Positions 27,341 to 45,392 of a DNA stretch of 64,000 bases are shown one piece after another. The notes under the pieces are model-generated. The model ran no database searches and was not told the DNA's origin. It saw only the letters and a list, made by a program, of their open reading frames with translations. The DNA comes from an uncultured Pelagibacteraceae bacterium (GTDB lineage: Bacteria; Pseudomonadota; Alphaproteobacteria; Pelagibacterales; Pelagibacteraceae). The stretch lies in the NCBI GenBank assembly GCA_902618855.1, contig CACNCD010000003.1, positions 33,878 through 97,877 of the forward strand. The letters are read 5' to 3'. Each line of letters opens with the position of its first letter. Position 1 is the stretch's first letter. Made by a program: the position numbers and the translations under genes.

Positions 27341-27796
27341 ATGTTTTTATCTACTTACGAAAACAAACTGGACAAAAAGGGACGGGTTTCTGTGCCTGCT
27401 AGTTTTAGATCATATCTTTCAAATTTAGGCTACAATGGAGTAGTTTGCTATCCATCATTTAACAATCAATCAATAGAAGCTTGGCCACAAGATAGAATAG
27501 AAAAAATTTCAAATGCAATCGATGCTTTGAATCCTTTTGAAGAAAAGAAAGATTACTTTGCAACATCAATTTTGTCTGAAAGTATTAATTTACAGTTTGA
27601 TAGCGAGGGAAGAATTTCCTTAACATCGAAACTATTAAAACATGCAAAAATTAAAAATAGCATGTTATTTGTTGGCCAAGGAAAGACATTTCAAATTTGG
27701 GAGCCAACTGCATTTGAAAAATTTAAGGCCCAAGCAAGAAAAAAATCCAATATAAATCGAGCAAGCCTTAAATGGGAAGAGATGGGTAAAAAATAA
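27341..27796 (+). CDS. mraZ: Transcriptional regulator MraZ
   Basis: Two SpoVT/AbrB-like repeats: FLSTYENKLDKKGRVSVPASFR and INLQFDSEGRISLTSKLLKHAKI. Confidence 0.93.
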   Translation: MFLSTYENKLDKKGRVSVPASFRSYLSNLGYNGVVCYPSFNNQSIEAWPQDRIEKISNAIDALNPFEEKKDYFATSILSESINLQFDSEGRISLTSKLLKHAKIKNSMLFVGQGKTFQIWEPTAFEKFKAQARKKSNINRASLKWEEMGKK

Positions 27797-27984
27797 TGAG
27801 AAAGATGGAACAAATTATTTTAATGCAAAAGATAGAAAATCTTCAAAACAATTGTTTAACAGCAATAGAAAAATCTATTGAAGGTACTTGGGCATATGAT
27901 TTTTGGACTAATACTTTCGATAAGTTAGAAAAAAACTATAAATTAATAAAAAATGGAGAGGGGATAAATGACAATAAATTTTAA
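27796..27984 (+). CDS. Hypothetical 62-aa protein between mraZ and ftsZ, overlapping both
   Basis: ATG overlaps the mraZ stop (TAATG); stop lies inside the 5' end of ftsZ; charged helical sequence. Confidence 0.65.
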
Positions 27985-29401
27985 AACACCAGATATAAGA
28001 GAATTAAAACCAAGAATATTAGTTCTTGGGGTTGGTGGAGCTGGAGGAAATGCAATTAATGGAATGATAGATAACGGTCTTCAAGGAGTAGAATTCATAG
28101 CTGTAAACACTGACGCTCAAGACCTTAAACATAGTAAAGCTAAACAGAAAATCCAAATCGGATTGAATTTGACAAAAGGATTAGGAGCTGGATCTAAACT
28201 AGATATTGGTCAGGCTGCAGCCGATGAATCGTTAAATGATATAGTAAATGTTCTTCAGGGTGCAAATATGGTTTTTATAACTGCAGGGATGGGCGGTGGA
28301 ACAGGAACTGGATCTGCGCATGTAATTGCAAGGGCAGCAAAAGAATTAAATATTTTAACAGTTGGAGTTGTTACTCTACCATTTTTATATGAAGGTCCCT
28401 CTAGAATGAGAAGAGCACAACAAGGTTTGGAAGAACTTAGAAAACATGTTGATACAATTATTGTAATACCAAATCAAAATTTGTTTAAAGTAGCAAGTGA
28501 ACAAACTACATTTGAGGAATCTTTTGAACTTTCAAATCATGTTTTGCTTCACGGAGTGCAAAGTATAACAGACTTGATGGTAAGACCTGGTCTAATTAAT
28601 TTAGATTTTGCAGATGTTGAACATGTTATGAGTTCAATGGGCAAAGCAATGATGGGAACAGGCGAAGCTGAGGGTGAAGGAAGGGCAGCAAAAGCAGCTG
28701 AAATGGCAATTACCAATCAATTAATTGACGACTATACACTGAAGGGCGCTAAAGGGTTGCTTGTCAATATTACTGGCGGAAAAGATCTTAAACTTTTTGA
28801 GGTTGACGAAGCAGTAAATAAAGTAAGAGCAGAAGTTGATCCTGAGGCAGAATTAATAATTGGAGCAATAACTGACCCTGCTCTCGAAGGTATTATGAGA
28901 GTTTCAATTGTTGCCACTGCTCTTGATGGTCAACAACCAGAGTCAAAATCAGTAATTAATATGGTTCATAGGATTCAAAATAGAAACCCTGGATACTCTG
29001 ATTTTTCAAATATTAATAATTCTAATAGTTTTAATTTGACTGCTACCGTGTCAAATACCATGACAAGTGGAGCTAATGCATTAAAACTTGAAAATGAAGT
29101 TATAAGTGAGGCAGAGACATCGTCTGATTTAGTTGATGCACATGTGCTTAATACAGAGGATACTGGCACCAATCACAAAATTGAGACAACCGAGATAGAA
29201 AATCCTCAGCCTGCCATGGACGAGGTAAAACCACAAACTTCAAATGGATTGGAAAATTTTGGAATTGAGGAGGAAACTCCAGATCTTTTTAGTTCTAATG
29301 AGGATAATAAAATTCATGAAATCACATCTTCGGAAGACGATGATGTTAACGAGGATGATGATTTTGAAATTCCAGCTTTTTTACGGAGACAAAAAAATTA
29401 A
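27968..29401 (+). CDS. ftsZ: Cell division GTPase FtsZ
   Basis: [28 protein letters not shown] tubulin signature, C-terminal peptide [13 protein letters not shown]. Confidence 0.98.
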
Positions 29402-32423: not shown

Positions 32424-35264
32424 ATGTTGATAGGGAACTACTTTAAAAATATAAATTCAAAATTTAAAAACCATAAATTTTCAGGTTTAAGTTTTAATAG
32501 CACAAAATGCAAAAAAAATTATATTTTTTTTGCAGTAAAAGGAAATAATAATGATGGAAATAGATATATATCCCATGCAATAAAAAATGGTGCAAAAACA
32601 ATAATATCAAACAATAATTTCGAGGGTAAAAAAAATGATGTTTTGTTTATAAAGTCATCGAATGTAAGAAAATTAATCGCTGAAATTGCAAATAAAGTTT
32701 ATAAAAAAAAACCTAAGAATCTTGTTGCAGTTACTGGAACAAATGGCAAATCATCAATTGCTAATTTTTATTTTCAAATATTAAAATTAAATAAAAAAAA
32801 AGTGGCATCAATTGGAACTTTAGGAATTCAAACAAACTTAAACAAAAAAAATTTAGAAAACACAACAATAGATCCTATAGAATTATCAAAATATCTTCTA
32901 AAATTAAAAGATCAAAATATTGACGATGTAATACTGGAAGCTTCGAGCCATGGATTAAAACAATATCGTCTTGATGGATTAAACTTTAAAATTGGAATAT
33001 TTACTAATTTATCTCGTGATCATTTAGATTATCATAAATCTTTTAAAGATTATTTAAATTCAAAACTTCATTTATTCAAAAAATTATTACAGAAAAATTC
33101 AAAAGTAATTACAGATTTAGATATTCCAGAGTATAAAAAAATTAAGTCAATAGTCAGAAGAAAAAGACTCCAATTAAATACAATATCAAATAAGTATGGT
33201 GATTTAAATCTCATATCTCATAAATATAAGGGAGAAAAACAAATTTTGAAAATTAGCTACAAAAATAGACTACATACTCTCGAATTGAATTTGATCGGTA
33301 AAATTCAATTAAAAAATCTTTTAATGTCGATGATAGCAGCAAATATGAGCAATATCGATTTTAAAAAAGTAGTAAATGTTGTAAAAAAAATTAAATCTGT
33401 TGCAGGACGTTTTGAGAAAATTGGAACATTAAAAAATAAATCACTAGTAATATTAGATTATGCACATACACCTGATGCCTTAAAAATATGTTTGCAGAAT
33501 ATTAAAGATCAATTTCAAAATAGAAAAATTTCATTAGTTTTTGGATGTGGTGGAGAGAGAGATAAAAATAAAAGACCTATGATGGGGAAAATAGCTAATA
33601 ATTATTGTGATAAGATTTATTTGACTGATGATAACCCTAGAAATGAAAATCCAGGAAAAATAAGAGCTGATATAAAAAGAAAAATAAAAAGATCTAAATT
33701 ACATGAAATTTCTAATAGAGAAATAGCAATTAAACACAGTATTCAAAATTTAAGTTCAGGAGAAATTTTAGTAGTAGCGGGAAAAGGACATGAAAAAGTA
33801 CAGGATTATGGAAAATATAAAAATTTTTTTTCAGATAAAGATTGTATTCAAAAATATATAAATAAAAAAAATAAAGAACTAAATAAGGATCTCAAATTAA
33901 ATATAATAAATGATATAAGAAAAAACAAAAAAATATCTTTTAAAGGAAAAATCAGAAATGCATCAATTAATTCAAAAGAAATAAAAAAAAATGATATTTT
34001 TTTTGCAATTCAGGGAAAAAACAAAGATGGAAATAAGTTTATCGGAGAAGCTTTTAATAAAGGCGCGTCTTTAGCTGTTGTAAATAAAATTGATAAATCC
34101 AAAAAAAGGAACAGGCAAATAAAAGTTGAAAATACCCTTGCTTTCCTAACAAAAACTTCAGAAATTATCAGACAAAACTCTTTATCCAAAATTATAGCGA
34201 TTACGGGAAGTTGTGGAAAAACTTCCCTAAAAGAACTTTTAAGGAAAACTTTAAGTAGATTTGGAAATGTAAGTTCCTCTCCTAAATCTTTTAATAATAA
34301 ATATGGTGTACCACTAAGTCTATTTAATCTGAATGTAAATCACGACTATGGAGTTTTTGAAGCTGGCATGGATAAAAAAGGCGAGATAGATAGATTAACT
34401 AAAATAATTAAACCTGATGTCGGTATAATTACCAATATATCTTATGCTCATGCAAAAAATTTTAAAAACATAAACCAAATAGCTTTAGCTAAGGCTGAAA
34501 TAATCAACAACATAAAACCAGGTGGTTTAATAATATTAAATGCTGATGATAGCTTTTTTTCTCTACATAAAAAAATAGCTCTTAAGAAAAAGTTACAGGT
34601 TTTGACCTTTGGCATGTATAAAAAAGCTAATGTACAATTTAGATCAATTTCAAGAAATAAAAATAATTTTAAAATTTCGGTAGCAATAAATAATAAAAAA
34701 ACTTTTTTTAATTTGTCTAGCAACTTTGAAAATTTTATAAAAAATATACTGGCGGTAATTACTGTTATTTCATATTTTACAGATCCGTTTAAATTGGACA
34801 AAAATATTTTTAGGAATTTTCAAACACCAGAGGGCAGAGGAGATATTTTAAAAATTAAAATTAATAAAAAGAACATTAATTTAGTTGATGAAAGTTATAA
34901 TTCGAATCCGCTTTCATTAAAAAGTGCAATACAAAATTTTAATATGATAAAAACTCGCAATAAAAAATATATGATTTTAGGAGATATGATGGAGCTGGGA
35001 AGGCACTCAAAAATTCAACATAGAAAAATAGCGCCAATTATTAATTCTTCTGGAATCGATAAAATTAATATCTTGGGGAATCACATAAAAGAAACCTTTA
35101 AAAATATAAAACCTGTAAAAAAAGGATTAATTTTAAGTGAAAGTTTACAAATAATTGATTTGATTAAAAATCAATTAAATAATAATGATTATTTAATGAT
35201 CAAAGGATCAAATTCGACAGGACTTAACAAATTCACAAAAGAACTTAAAAAAAATGTTATATAG
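32424..35264 (+). CDS. MurE-MurF fusion (UDP-MurNAc-tripeptide synthetase plus tripeptidyl:D-Ala-D-Ala ligase)
   Basis: 946 aa with two Mur-ligase modules: VTGTNGKSSIANF (MurE half) and ITGSCGKTSLKELL (MurF half). Confidence 0.93.
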   Translation: MLIGNYFKNINSKFKNHKFSGLSFNSTKCKKNYIFFAVKGNNNDGNRYISHAIKNGAKTIISNNNFEGKKNDVLFIKSSNVRKLIAEIANKVYKKKPKNLVAVTGTNGKSSIANFYFQILKLNKKKVASIGTLGIQTNLNKKNLENTTIDPIELSKYLLKLKDQNIDDVILEASSHGLKQYRLDGLNFKIGIFTNLSRDHLDYHKSFKDYLNSKLHLFKKLLQKNSKVITDLDIPEYKKIKSIVRRKRLQLNTISNKYGDLNLISHKYKGEKQILKISYKNRLHTLELNLIGKIQLKNLLMSMIAANMSNIDFKKVVNVVKKIKSVAGRFEKIGTLKNKSLVILDYAHTPDALKICLQNIKDQFQNRKISLVFGCGGERDKNKRPMMGKIANNYCDKIYLTDDNPRNENPGKIRADIKRKIKRSKLHEISNREIAIKHSIQNLSSGEILVVAGKGHEKVQDYGKYKNFFSDKDCIQKYINKKNKELNKDLKLNIINDIRKNKKISFKGKIRNASINSKEIKKNDIFFAIQGKNKDGNKFIGEAFNKGASLAVVNKIDKSKKRNRQIKVENTLAFLTKTSEIIRQNSLSKIIAITGSCGKTSLKELLRKTLSRFGNVSSSPKSFNNKYGVPLSLFNLNVNHDYGVFEAGMDKKGEIDRLTKIIKPDVGIITNISYAHAKNFKNINQIALAKAEIINNIKPGGLIILNADDSFFSLHKKIALKKKLQVLTFGMYKKANVQFRSISRNKNNFKISVAINNKKTFFNLSSNFENFIKNILAVITVISYFTDPFKLDKNIFRNFQTPEGRGDILKIKINKKNINLVDESYNSNPLSLKSAIQNFNMIKTRNKKYMILGDMMELGRHSKIQHRKIAPIINSSGIDKINILGNHIKETFKNIKPVKKGLILSESLQIIDLIKNQLNNNDYLMIKGSNSTGLNKFTKELKKNVI

Positions 35265-42124: not shown

Positions 42125-43035
42125 AAAAAGTTATTATTTTAGGAGGTGGAATTTCAAAAGAAAGACTCATAAGTCTAGAAACTGCTAGAAGTGTATTAAA
42201 ATCATTAAAAAAAAATAAAAAATACAAATCAATAATTTCAGAGCCTGATGAAGATTTTTTTAAAAAAGTAAAAACTTTTAAACCTGACATAGTATTTAAT
42301 GCATTACACGGTCAATTTGGAGAAGATGGCTATATACAAACCATATTAGAGTCCCAAAAAATAAAATATACACACTCAGGAGTGCTTGCATCCTCAATTG
42401 CAATGGATAAAGAAATATCTAAAAAAATTTTTTTGAAAAATAAAATCCTTACACCCAAACATATAAAATATGATTTCAATAAAAAAAATAAAAATATTAC
42501 TTCACAAATTCAAAAAAAACTTAAATTCCCAGTAGTGATCAAACCAATTAATGAAGGATCAAGTGTAAATGTTTACATTTGTTCAAAACGAAACTTTTTT
42601 AAAAACTTAAAAAAATTATCAAATTACAATCAAATTTTAATAGAAGAATACATACCAGGTCGAGAAATTCAGGTGGCGATAATGGGAAAAAAAAAATTAG
42701 GTGCCATTGAACTTAAACCAAAAAGAAAATTTTACGACTACAAGGCGAAGTATAGTGTGAAAGCGCAAACTAAACACATAATACCTGTTGATCTAGAAAA
42801 AAATAAAATAAAGGAAATAATGAATATTGCCTTAAAAGCACATAAATTAATTGGTTGCAGGGGAGTAACTAGATCAGATTTTAAATTTTTTAAAAATAAA
42901 TTTTATCTTTTAGAAATAAATACTCAACCGGGTATGACAAATCTTTCTTTAGTTCCTGAAATTGCAAATTACTATGGAATTAATTTTGCAAATTTAATTG
43001 AATGGATTTTAAAAGATGCATCTTCCAATAGATAA
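42121..43035 (+). CDS. ddl: D-alanine-D-alanine ligase
   Basis: NALHGQFGEDGYIQTILE, KPINEGSSVNV, EINTQPGMTNLSLVPEIA. Confidence 0.94.
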   Translation: MKKVIILGGGISKERLISLETARSVLKSLKKNKKYKSIISEPDEDFFKKVKTFKPDIVFNALHGQFGEDGYIQTILESQKIKYTHSGVLASSIAMDKEISKKIFLKNKILTPKHIKYDFNKKNKNITSQIQKKLKFPVVIKPINEGSSVNVYICSKRNFFKNLKKLSNYNQILIEEYIPGREIQVAIMGKKKLGAIELKPKRKFYDYKAKYSVKAQTKHIIPVDLEKNKIKEIMNIALKAHKLIGCRGVTRSDFKFFKNKFYLLEINTQPGMTNLSLVPEIANYYGINFANLIEWILKDASSNR

Positions 43036-43702
43036 AAAAAATAAAATTTATTTATATTTAGTTATATTTTTTTTATTTACAACAATTAGTAATTTGCAAG
43101 TATATAATTCGAATTTATTCAAATTTGGTTCAAAAGATATAAAGGTTTCAGGTCTTTCAGAAAAAAATAATTTATCTATTGTCCAAGAGTTGAAAAAAAT
43201 CCAGGTGAAAAATATTTTCTTTATTCAAAAGGATATTCTAATTAAAATTTTGAGTCAAAATAATTTAGTAAATTCTTTTGAAATTAAAAAGGTATTTCCA
43301 AATACAATAGAAATAAAAATAAAAAAAACTCAATTCTTAGGTATAATTAATATTGATGGAATTTTCTATTTTATAGGATCAAATGGCAAATTAATTAATT
43401 ATGATGAATCAACTAAAAATTTACCTTACGTTTTCGGAAAAATAAATACATTTAGTTTTATAGAATTTATTAATATTATTAAACAGTCAACAGTTAATAT
43501 CAAAAATATAAAAGAAATTTATTTTTTTCCATCAGGAAGATGGGATATTAAAACAAAAGAAGACAAGTTATTTAAATTACCAAGCAAAAATATATTGTCA
43601 GCTTTAAATATTATAAGTAAATTAAATAATTCAAAAGAATTTAAAAAAGCCTCAATAGTTGATTTAAGATTTAATAAAAAAATAATTTTTACTAATGAAT
43701 GA
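43016..43702 (+). CDS. ftsQ: FtsQ/DivIB-like division protein
   Basis: One N-terminal TM, POTRA-like KIQVKNIFFIQKDILIKIL...VFPNTIEIKIKKTQF; between ddl and the ftsA-slot gene. Confidence 0.8.
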   Translation: MHLPIDKKNKIYLYLVIFFLFTTISNLQVYNSNLFKFGSKDIKVSGLSEKNNLSIVQELKKIQVKNIFFIQKDILIKILSQNNLVNSFEIKKVFPNTIEIKIKKTQFLGIINIDGIFYFIGSNGKLINYDESTKNLPYVFGKINTFSFIEFINIIKQSTVNIKNIKEIYFFPSGRWDIKTKEDKLFKLPSKNILSALNIISKLNNSKEFKKASIVDLRFNKKIIFTNE

Positions 43703-44405
43703 AAAAGCAACAGATGTTTACTTTAGTCTAGATCAAAACAGATTAAGTTTTGGGGTTTTTCAAAAAATAAATAACCGTTTGATTTTTTCTGACGCGGAAA
43801 ATATCAGCGTTGTCAGTATTAATGAAGACACAGATTTTGATTTTTTAAAAAAACCACTTGAAAAAAATATTAAAAAGATCGAAAAAAAAATTAATTCTTT
43901 CGTCAATAATATTTGTTTAATGGTAGAAACAAATAGATCAATATCTATCTGTATTTCTTTAATGAAAAATCTCGATAATAAAAAAATTCAAAATAAAGAT
44001 ATTAAATATCTTATTCAAGATGCGAAACAACAGATACTTAGAGCATATCCTAATAATAGTATTGCGCATATAATTGTAAAAAAATATATGATTAATGACC
44101 TTGAATATAATTTTGCACCAAGTAACATCGTATGTGAAAAAATTTCTTTAGATATTGAATTTATTTGCCTACCTAAAAACTTAATTAAAAGATTAGAATC
44201 ATTGTTTCGGGGATTTGAAATCACTATTGATAAATTTGTATGTGCTTTATATGCAAATTCTTTTGCCTCTAAGTTGGAAGGTCAAAATATTTGTCAAATT
44301 GGATACAATTTAAGTAATGGTTTCAACAAGCAAGAGGTTGTGTTAATACCCAAAAAAATTGAAAAAACAGGATTTTTTGAGAAACTTTTTCATTTTTTTA
44401 AATAA
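43695..44405 (+). CDS. Drastically shortened FtsA-like protein (1A/1C-like region plus amphipathic tail; no actin domain 2)
   Basis: 236 aa in the ftsA slot, overlapping ftsQ; IQNKDIKYLIQDAKQQI...IIVKKYMINDLEYN...EISLDIEFICLPKNLIKRLESLFRGFEITIDKFVCALYANSFA follows the FtsA 1C order; tail KKIEKTGFFEKLFHFFK resembles the FtsA membrane-targeting helix. Confidence 0.65.
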   Translation: MNEKATDVYFSLDQNRLSFGVFQKINNRLIFSDAENISVVSINEDTDFDFLKKPLEKNIKKIEKKINSFVNNICLMVETNRSISICISLMKNLDNKKIQNKDIKYLIQDAKQQILRAYPNNSIAHIIVKKYMINDLEYNFAPSNIVCEKISLDIEFICLPKNLIKRLESLFRGFEITIDKFVCALYANSFASKLEGQNICQIGYNLSNGFNKQEVVLIPKKIEKTGFFEKLFHFFK

Positions 44406-44468: not shown

Positions 44469-45392
44469 ATGATGTCAGTTTTAAATCAAAAAACACTTAA
44501 AAGCACCATGACCTTTGAAGGTATTGCCCTTCATTCAGGAAAAATGGTTAATATGAAAGTAAAACCCGCACAGCCAAATACAGGAATAGTTTTTAAAAGA
44601 ACTGACTTAAAAAATAACAATACAGTAATTCCAGGAATTTTTAATGTTAGTAGCGCGATTTTTTGTACAACAATATCAAATGATTATGGCGTTAATATTT
44701 CAACTATAGAACATTTGATGGGAGCACTTTATGGCACAGGAATAGATAATGCATTAGTTGAAGTTGATAGTGATGAACTTCCAATTTTAGATGGTTCAGC
44801 AAAAGTTTACGTTGAGCAGATTAGTAAAACAGGAATTGAAATTAGCAATTCCCCAATAAAAGTTATTAAAATTGAAAAGAAAATTCTATTTGAAGATGGA
44901 AAAAAATATATTTCTATAGAACCAAGTAAATTAAGTTTAGACATAGATTTTGAAATCAAATATGAAAATTCATTAATTGGAAATCAAAGAAATACGATAA
45001 AAGTTTATGAGGACGACCTTAAAGATATATTTAACTCTAGAACTTTCTGTTTGTATGAAGATATAGATAAATTAAAGAAAATGGACTTGGCAAAAGGTGG
45101 ATCATTAGAAAATGCTATAGTAGTTCAGGATGAAAAAATTTTGAATAAAAGTGGTTTAAGAAATAATTTAGAATTTGTTAACCATAAAATTCTAGATTGT
45201 ATGGGAGACTTATACCTTTCTGGATATAAGATAATTGGAAAATTAATATGCTCACAAGGCGGCCATAAACTTACAAATGAATTATTAAGGAAAGTTTTTG
45301 AAAATGATCAAAACTTTTCCATTATAGAAGTCCGAGAGAACAAAATTCCCCATTCATTCGTTAATAAAAGATATCTAAAATCAATAGCTTAA
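44469..45392 (+). CDS. lpxC: UDP-3-O-acyl-GlcNAc deacetylase
   Basis: TLKSTMTFEGIALHSGK, STIEHLMGALYG, DNALVEVDSDELPILDGSA, FVNHKILDCMGDLYL. Confidence 0.96.
   Translation: MMSVLNQKTLKSTMTFEGIALHSGKMVNMKVKPAQPNTGIVFKRTDLKNNNTVIPGIFNVSSAIFCTTISNDYGVNISTIEHLMGALYGTGIDNALVEVDSDELPILDGSAKVYVEQISKTGIEISNSPIKVIKIEKKILFEDGKKYISIEPSKLSLDIDFEIKYENSLIGNQRNTIKVYEDDLKDIFNSRTFCLYEDIDKLKKMDLAKGGSLENAIVVQDEKILNKSGLRNNLEFVNHKILDCMGDLYLSGYKIIGKLICSQGGHKLTNELLRKVFENDQNFSIIEVRENKIPHSFVNKRYLKSIA

What the first reader, a model, noticed from the sequence alone, without database searches (positions are those of the whole stretch)
43695..44405. Miniature FtsA: the ftsA-slot gene lacks the actin ATPase domain 2 but keeps a 1C-like region and a C-terminal amphipathic tail
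Seen directly: an intact 236-aa ORF between ftsQ and lpxC, overlapping ftsQ. Established: FtsA is normally about 400-420 aa, with subdomains 1A, 1C, 2A, 2B and a C-terminal membrane-targeting helix. By eye the ORF follows FtsA through 1A/1C: YFSLDQNRLSFGVF sits where GLDIGTTKVCALV is expected, and IQNKDIKYLIQDAKQQI through FEITIDKFVCALYANSFA follows the 1C region. It then jumps from where the 2A strand LIDIGGGTTDIAVF should be (ICQIGYNLSNGFNKQEVVLI) straight to the tail KKIEKTGFFEKLFHFFK. No phosphate-binding or adenosine motifs are recognisable. Only 63 bp separate it from lpxC, so the missing part is deleted rather than frameshifted. Inference: FtsA reduced to a non-ATPase membrane adaptor for FtsZ and divisome contacts, which would be a notable simplification of the Z-ring anchor.
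Basis: partly seen in the sequence, partly recalled or inferred. Interest (0 to 1): 0.88.

Follow-up and report, generated by a model that had tools for sequence, protein, structure and literature searches.

The report
FtsA missing its ATP/FtsZ-binding half
Most sampled species of the ocean bacterium Candidatus Pelagibacter (SAR11) carry a shortened version of the cell-division protein FtsA from which exactly the half that binds ATP and grips the FtsZ ring is gone, so one of the most abundant bacteria on Earth probably ties its division ring to the membrane in an undescribed way.

Summary
The 236-aa ORF at 43695-44405, in the ftsA slot between ftsQ and lpxC, is an FtsA orthologue. It keeps subdomains IA and IC, the last IA helix and the C-terminal amphipathic tail; subdomains IIA+IIB are cleanly missing. 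AlphaFold (pLDDT 84) plus Foldseek returns FtsA as the top 19 PDB hits over 189 columns; a full-length relative from the same genus gives 388. It is not an artefact: 220-246-aa versions occur in well over 100 Candidatus Pelagibacter species-genomes, several single-contig, under purifying selection (dN/dS 0.09-0.26). Those complete genomes hold no second FtsA, SepF, ZipA or MinC. In the samples searched the form is confined to this genus and patchy there (44 short, 22 long in one high-quality sample). Full-length relatives keep the FtsZ-docking Arg/Glu of IIB invariant; short forms lack that helix, yet the FtsZ tail EIPAFLRRQ is identical in both groups. So "reduced non-ATPase FtsA" is right, but "adaptor for FtsZ" is not shown, because the known FtsZ site is what was lost. 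I propose a non-polymerising membrane adaptor that keeps the IA-IC cleft. Whether the form arose once (then spread) or repeatedly is unresolved.

The parts
43695..44405 (+). short ftsA (236 aa): IA + IC + last IA helix + amphipathic tail, no IIA/IIB
43695..43940 (+). subdomain IA, first part (residues 1-82), with a degenerate phosphate-1 loop YFSLDQNRLSFGVF
   Evidence: model secondary structure E6-12, E16-23, E28-36, H48-66, E72-77; motif comparison
43866..43868 (+). codon of Asn58: Asn in 95% of short forms (Gln in the rest); mostly Ile/Leu/Val in long forms
43941..44174 (+). subdomain IC / SHS2-like (residues about 83-160)
   Evidence: Pfam PF02491 hit 89-157; model; FtsA alignments in PDB
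44175..44270 (+). subdomain IA, second part (residues 161-192)
44265..44280 (+). deletion junction: 130-160 residues of IIA+IIB present in long relatives are missing here
   Evidence: alignment; missing elements are long-form residues about 190-328
44289..44315 (+). last IA helix (residues 199-207), retained after the deletion
   Evidence: model H199-207 versus long-form H329-341
44370..44402 (+). C-terminal amphipathic tail GFFEKLFHFFK (hydrophobic moment 0.69)
   Evidence: same motif in long forms
43016..43702 (+). ftsQ, overlapping ftsA by 8 bp
44469..45392 (+). lpxC, 63 bp downstream
27968..29401 (+). ftsZ, located after mraZ and away from ftsQA
29366..29398 (+). conserved FtsZ C-terminal peptide [11 protein letters not shown], unchanged although its IIB docking site is gone

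Best explanation
This is a functional FtsA orthologue from which subdomains IIA and IIB were removed. What is left is a stable IA+IC body held to the membrane by the usual C-terminal amphipathic helix. Shown here: the anatomy, the fold prediction, the wide occurrence, the purifying selection and the absence of a second FtsA. Inferred: it no longer binds ATP (half the cleft is gone and the phosphate-1 loop has decayed); it no longer forms canonical FtsA filaments, whose longitudinal contacts run through IIA-IIB; and it cannot hold the FtsZ tail in the known way. The IA-IC cleft, where FtsN binds in solved structures, and the IC face are retained. It therefore most likely works as a nucleotide-independent membrane adaptor that passes the divisome signal to FtsQLB/FtsWI-type partners, while the unchanged FtsZ tail is held either by a new contact on this same protein or by an unidentified anchor.
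For: Top 19 PDB fold matches are FtsA (7q6i_B E 6.8e-12, TMq 0.69, 189 columns); the long form from the same genus matches FtsA over 388 columns as a positive control. Profile hits to FtsA in PDB cover IA-IC only. Short frames fill the same slot in well over 100 genomes: 131 of the 150 best-listed genus matches, and 44 short against 22 long in the high-completeness sample. dN/dS 0.09-0.26 in short ftsA, like ftsQ and long ftsA. Complete short-form genomes hold only MreB- and DnaK-like frames as further actin-family hits, no SepF, no ZipA, no MinC over cut-off. The amphipathic tail is kept. The IIB docking residues (T. maritima R301/E304; HTCC1062-type R274/E277) are invariant in 17 long forms and absent with the domain in short ones, while the FtsZ tail is identical with short or long FtsA in this genus. 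Literature: 2B deletion abolishes FtsZ interaction and 1C recruits FtsQ/FtsN (PMC4281207); FtsN binds the IA-IC cleft and longitudinal filament contacts are IIA-IIB (PMC7613929).
Against: No binding, polymerisation or essentiality test exists. No bitopic FtsN was recognised in these genomes (SPOR hits are RlpA-like lipoproteins), so the partner of the IA-IC cleft is not identified. The FtsZ tail's full conservation suggests that something still binds it, possibly this protein. The tail helix has low model confidence (<50).
Confidence: 0.66

Rival explanations
1. The short FtsA is still the Z-ring anchor: the FtsZ C-terminal peptide (or the xPxLF linker motif) docks on a new site on IA/IC, and only ATP control and polymerisation were lost.
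For: FtsZ tail invariant in short-form genomes; membrane tail kept; no SepF, ZipA or MinC found; Asn58 and other changes are shared by short forms.
Against: The characterised docking helix is deleted, and no new pocket was demonstrated. The tail is equally conserved in long-form relatives, so its conservation may serve another partner.
Confidence: 0.45
2. Z-ring anchoring has passed to another, unrecognised protein that binds the FtsZ tail; short FtsA keeps only its late role (activating septal wall synthesis through IA/IC).
For: FtsZ tail kept although IIB is gone; the IA-IC cleft, which binds FtsN elsewhere, is kept (for the literature).
Against: No candidate found among the tested families; no genome-wide gene comparison of short against long genomes could be done here.
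Confidence: 0.4
3. The missing domain is supplied in trans by a split gene or by MreB.
For: MreB-like frames are present in complete genomes.
Against: With the whole-FtsA model at E up to 10, complete short-form genomes show only ~348-aa MreB-like and ~648-aa DnaK-like frames besides the short gene; long-form genomes have the same MreB-like frames.
Confidence: 0.03
4. The gene is a decaying remnant, or an assembly or sequencing artefact.
For: Fast divergence (24-32% identity between short clades); one single-contig genome (size equal to HIMB5) has a frameshift in a T7A8 run.
Against: Same length and boundaries in well over 100 genomes, including single-contig ones; dN/dS well below 1.
Confidence: 0.02

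Closest known systems
FtsA (TIGR01174; PDB 1e4f, 4a2a, 7q6d, 7q6f/i)
   Same: gene slot between ftsQ and lpxC, IA and IC subdomains, last IA helix, C-terminal amphipathic tail; orthologous by alignment to full-length relatives in the same genus
   Different: IIA and IIB missing, with the second half of the nucleotide cleft and the FtsZ-tail docking helix; phosphate-1 loop decayed; far below the family cut-off
Full-length FtsA of HTCC1062-type Pelagibacter
   Same: up to 43-44% identical over IA/IC, same tail GFFEKLFHFF, same synteny
   Different: carries IIA/IIB with invariant R274/E277; its own phosphate-2 motif is already degenerate (FIDIAFKKTSII in place of DIGGGT)
PilM and the cytoplasmic domain of GspL/EpsL
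   Same: related actin-like fold (PilM E about 1e-6, EpsL E 4e-5)
   Different: weaker match, other gene context; PilM keeps IIA/IIB
SepF / ZipA (non-FtsA Z-ring anchors)
   Same: possible functional analogy: small membrane-bound division adaptor
   Different: unrelated fold; no member found in these genomes

Membership tests
FtsA | IA subdomain of the actin-like fold | tested here: met
   AlphaFold model and Foldseek, 189 columns to FtsA
FtsA | IC (SHS2) insertion | tested here: met
   PF02491 at 89-157 E 1.4e-4, slightly below its cut-off; profile and fold alignments cover it
FtsA | IIA/IIB subdomains (PF14450) | tested here: not met
FtsA | nucleotide-binding motifs | tested here: not met
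   phosphate-1 residues lost, phosphate-2 and adenosine motifs absent with domain II
FtsA | IIB docking helix for the FtsZ tail (T. maritima R301/E304) | tested here: not met
   aligned; region absent in the short form
FtsA | C-terminal amphipathic membrane helix | tested here: met
   hydrophobic moment 0.63-0.74 in short forms, 0.65-0.79 in long; membrane binding itself not tested
FtsA | gene position after ftsQ in the division cluster | tested here: met
FtsA | score above the curated TIGR01174 cut-off | tested here: not met
   37.3 bits against 175.85; long Pelagibacter forms also fail, 71-88 bits
FtsA | binds FtsZ and polymerises with ATP | not testable with these tools
   needs biochemistry or complex prediction
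SepF | SepF domain PF04472 | tested here: not met
   none over cut-off in 18 genomes
ZipA | ZipA_C domain PF04354 | tested here: not met
   no match in 18 genomes
PilM/GspL | closest fold and gene context of pilus or secretion genes | tested here: not met
   FtsA ranks first by several orders of magnitude in E-value; context is the division cluster

The most novel reading that the evidence does not exclude
In most Candidatus Pelagibacter species the Z-ring is coupled to the membrane and to wall synthesis without an ATP-binding, filament-forming FtsA: an IA-IC remnant carries the essential function, and the invariant FtsZ tail is held by a site or protein not yet described.
Probability: 0.6. 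Interest if true: 0.88.

Novelty: new variant of a known kind. Interest (0 to 1): 0.8.

Why it matters
FtsA is treated as an ATP-dependent, filament-forming actin whose IIB subdomain grips FtsZ. Here that half has been dropped in many species of one of the most abundant bacterial groups, with the rest of the gene under selection and the FtsZ tail unchanged. That makes directly testable which FtsA functions are indispensable (IA-IC signalling against ATP, polymers and FtsZ docking) and what else can hold FtsZ. Closely related genomes with long and short forms (sizes equal to those of the cultured strains HTCC1062 and HTCC7211) offer a natural comparison. I found no description of it in the held literature.

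Tried and rejected
1) Full-length FtsA elsewhere: rejected for complete short-form genomes; the window's own genome is only 87.65% complete, so its own absence is weak evidence. 2) SepF, ZipA, MinC as replacement anchors: none over cut-off. 3) FtsN: SPOR hits turned out to be RlpA-like lipoproteins. 4) A first 65-genome species tree was discarded because Mur-ligase paralogues had been mixed; corrected. 5) Repeated independent loss: suggested by the species tree (6 changes, 5 forced) and flanking genes (5-6 changes each), but the ftsA gene tree puts all 38 short forms together (98/98) and mostly rejects the species groupings (AU p 0.0008-0.053). Without the phosphate-1 and junction columns the support falls (62/73); without N58/F69 as well, one origin is not rejected (p 0.30) and two of four species groupings are not either (p 0.06, 0.11), the other two having p 0.01-0.03. 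Left open: one origin with horizontal replacement, or parallel loss with convergence.

Full report
WHAT IS THERE. The 236-aa ORF at 43695-44405 is intact, overlaps ftsQ by 8 bp and ends 63 bp before lpxC. The window is from Candidatus Pelagibacter; the nearest named relative is single-cell isolate AG-414-D15, 91% identical. NCBIfam ftsA matches residues 47-191 (E 1.6e-9, 37 bits against a cut-off of 176), Pfam SHS2_FTSA matches 89-157 (E 1.4e-4). Domain-2 model PF14450 finds nothing in the genome, although that genome is only 87.65% complete.

FOLD. AlphaFold2 on 18 short forms gives pLDDT 84, pTM 0.79, with only the tail (218-236) below 50. Foldseek against the PDB returns FtsA for the first 19 hits (best E 6.8e-12, TMq 0.69, 189 columns), then PilM and cytoplasmic EpsL. 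As a positive control the full-length form from a genome whose size equals that of HTCC1062 (pLDDT 83.4, pTM 0.83) matches FtsA over 388 columns. The elements missing in the short form are those at long-form residues about 190-328, i.e. IIA+IIB. The last IA helix (long H329-341) is kept (short H199-207).

NOT AN ARTEFACT. Of 150 best-listed matches in the genus, 131 are open frames of 220-246 aa, 17 are long and 2 unclear (my count). In the high-completeness sample the genus has 44 short and 22 long (my count), the rest partial or unlisted. Single-contig genomes at 99% completeness carry it (G003, G017, G035, G063). dN/dS of short ftsA is 0.09-0.26; ftsQ in the same short-form pairs gives 0.15-0.36 and long ftsA 0.12-0.16.

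RANGE. Other genera of the family have frames of about 380-430 aa, apart from contig ends and a few broken frames; a second family of the order has about 397-403 aa. Of 144 alphaproteobacterial genomes, 134 have an FtsA-1C match; all frames are 398 aa or longer except the window's own and one at a contig end.

WHAT WAS LOST. In 17 long forms across Pelagibacteraceae, R274 and E277 (HTCC1062-type numbering) are invariant. The HMM alignment places them on T. maritima R301 and E304 in helix HARLREIM (the residue numbers are my count from the printed alignment end, and that this helix docks the FtsZ tail in 4a2a is from my own knowledge). Published work summarised in PMC4281207 states that removing 2B abolishes the FtsA-FtsZ interaction and that 1C recruits FtsQ and FtsN. 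PMC7613929 shows FtsN in the IA-IC cleft and longitudinal filament contacts between IIA and IIB. The short form therefore keeps the FtsN-type cleft and loses the FtsZ and filament surfaces. Long Pelagibacter forms already have a degenerate phosphate-2 motif (e.g. FIDIAFKKTSII) and low family scores (71-88 bits, against 169 and 214 in two other genera). This suggests that nucleotide dependence weakened before the domain was lost (inference).

WHAT WAS KEPT. The amphipathic tail is equally strong in both forms. The FtsZ tail [10 protein letters not shown] is the same in this genus whichever FtsA is present, and nearly so (EIPAFLR[R/K]Q) across the family. Complete short-form genomes have no second FtsA, SepF, ZipA or MinC over cut-off. 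So the FtsZ tail is kept although its only recognised receptor is gone.

HISTORY. A 65-genome tree of 12 cluster proteins needs 6 changes of form, 5 forced by well-supported branches; the neighbouring genes ftsQ, lpxC, ddl and murB need 5-6 each. The ftsA gene tree instead joins all 38 short forms (98/98). That signal rests largely on the phosphate-1 loop, the junction and Asn58/Phe69. With these removed, one origin is not rejected (AU p 0.30) and the species groupings are rejected only in part (p 0.01-0.11). I leave open whether there was one origin with horizontal replacement or several parallel losses.

MECHANISM. Shown: anatomy, predicted fold, distribution, selection, absence of a known substitute. 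Inferred: no ATP control, no canonical filaments, no canonical FtsZ docking; an adaptor acting through IA-IC at the membrane. Open: what holds FtsZ.

LITERATURE. No paper in the held library describes this.

Noticed in passing
L089:16363-17062 (G078, size equal to HIMB5): The short ftsA is split by a frameshift at a TTTTTTTAAAAAAAA run in a complete genome; sequencing error, slippage or a true break cannot be told apart here.
   Followed up: partly
window 29276-29290: A second conserved motif, xPxLF (TPDLF here), lies in the disordered FtsZ linker upstream of the C-terminal peptide; it recurs across most Pelagibacteraceae genera with either FtsA form.
   Followed up: partly
window 27341-29401: ftsZ sits directly after mraZ at the start of the cluster instead of next to ftsA; the same order holds in two other genera of the family (L099, L100).
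   Followed up: partly
window 32424-35264: A 946-aa ORF looks like fused MurE and MurF; it is single in this genus, while two other genera (L099, L100) have a 460-466-aa match.
   Followed up: no
L145-L153: The only SPOR-domain proteins found look like RlpA-type lipoproteins; no bitopic FtsN was recognised in these genomes.
   Followed up: partly
L022 and L025: In another genus of the family, ftsA frames end early inside domain 2 (332 and 294 aa) and lack the tail; probably frameshifts.
   Followed up: no
L161 and L174 (G011): One draft genome holds two different ftsZ copies; could be contamination (2% reported).
   Followed up: no
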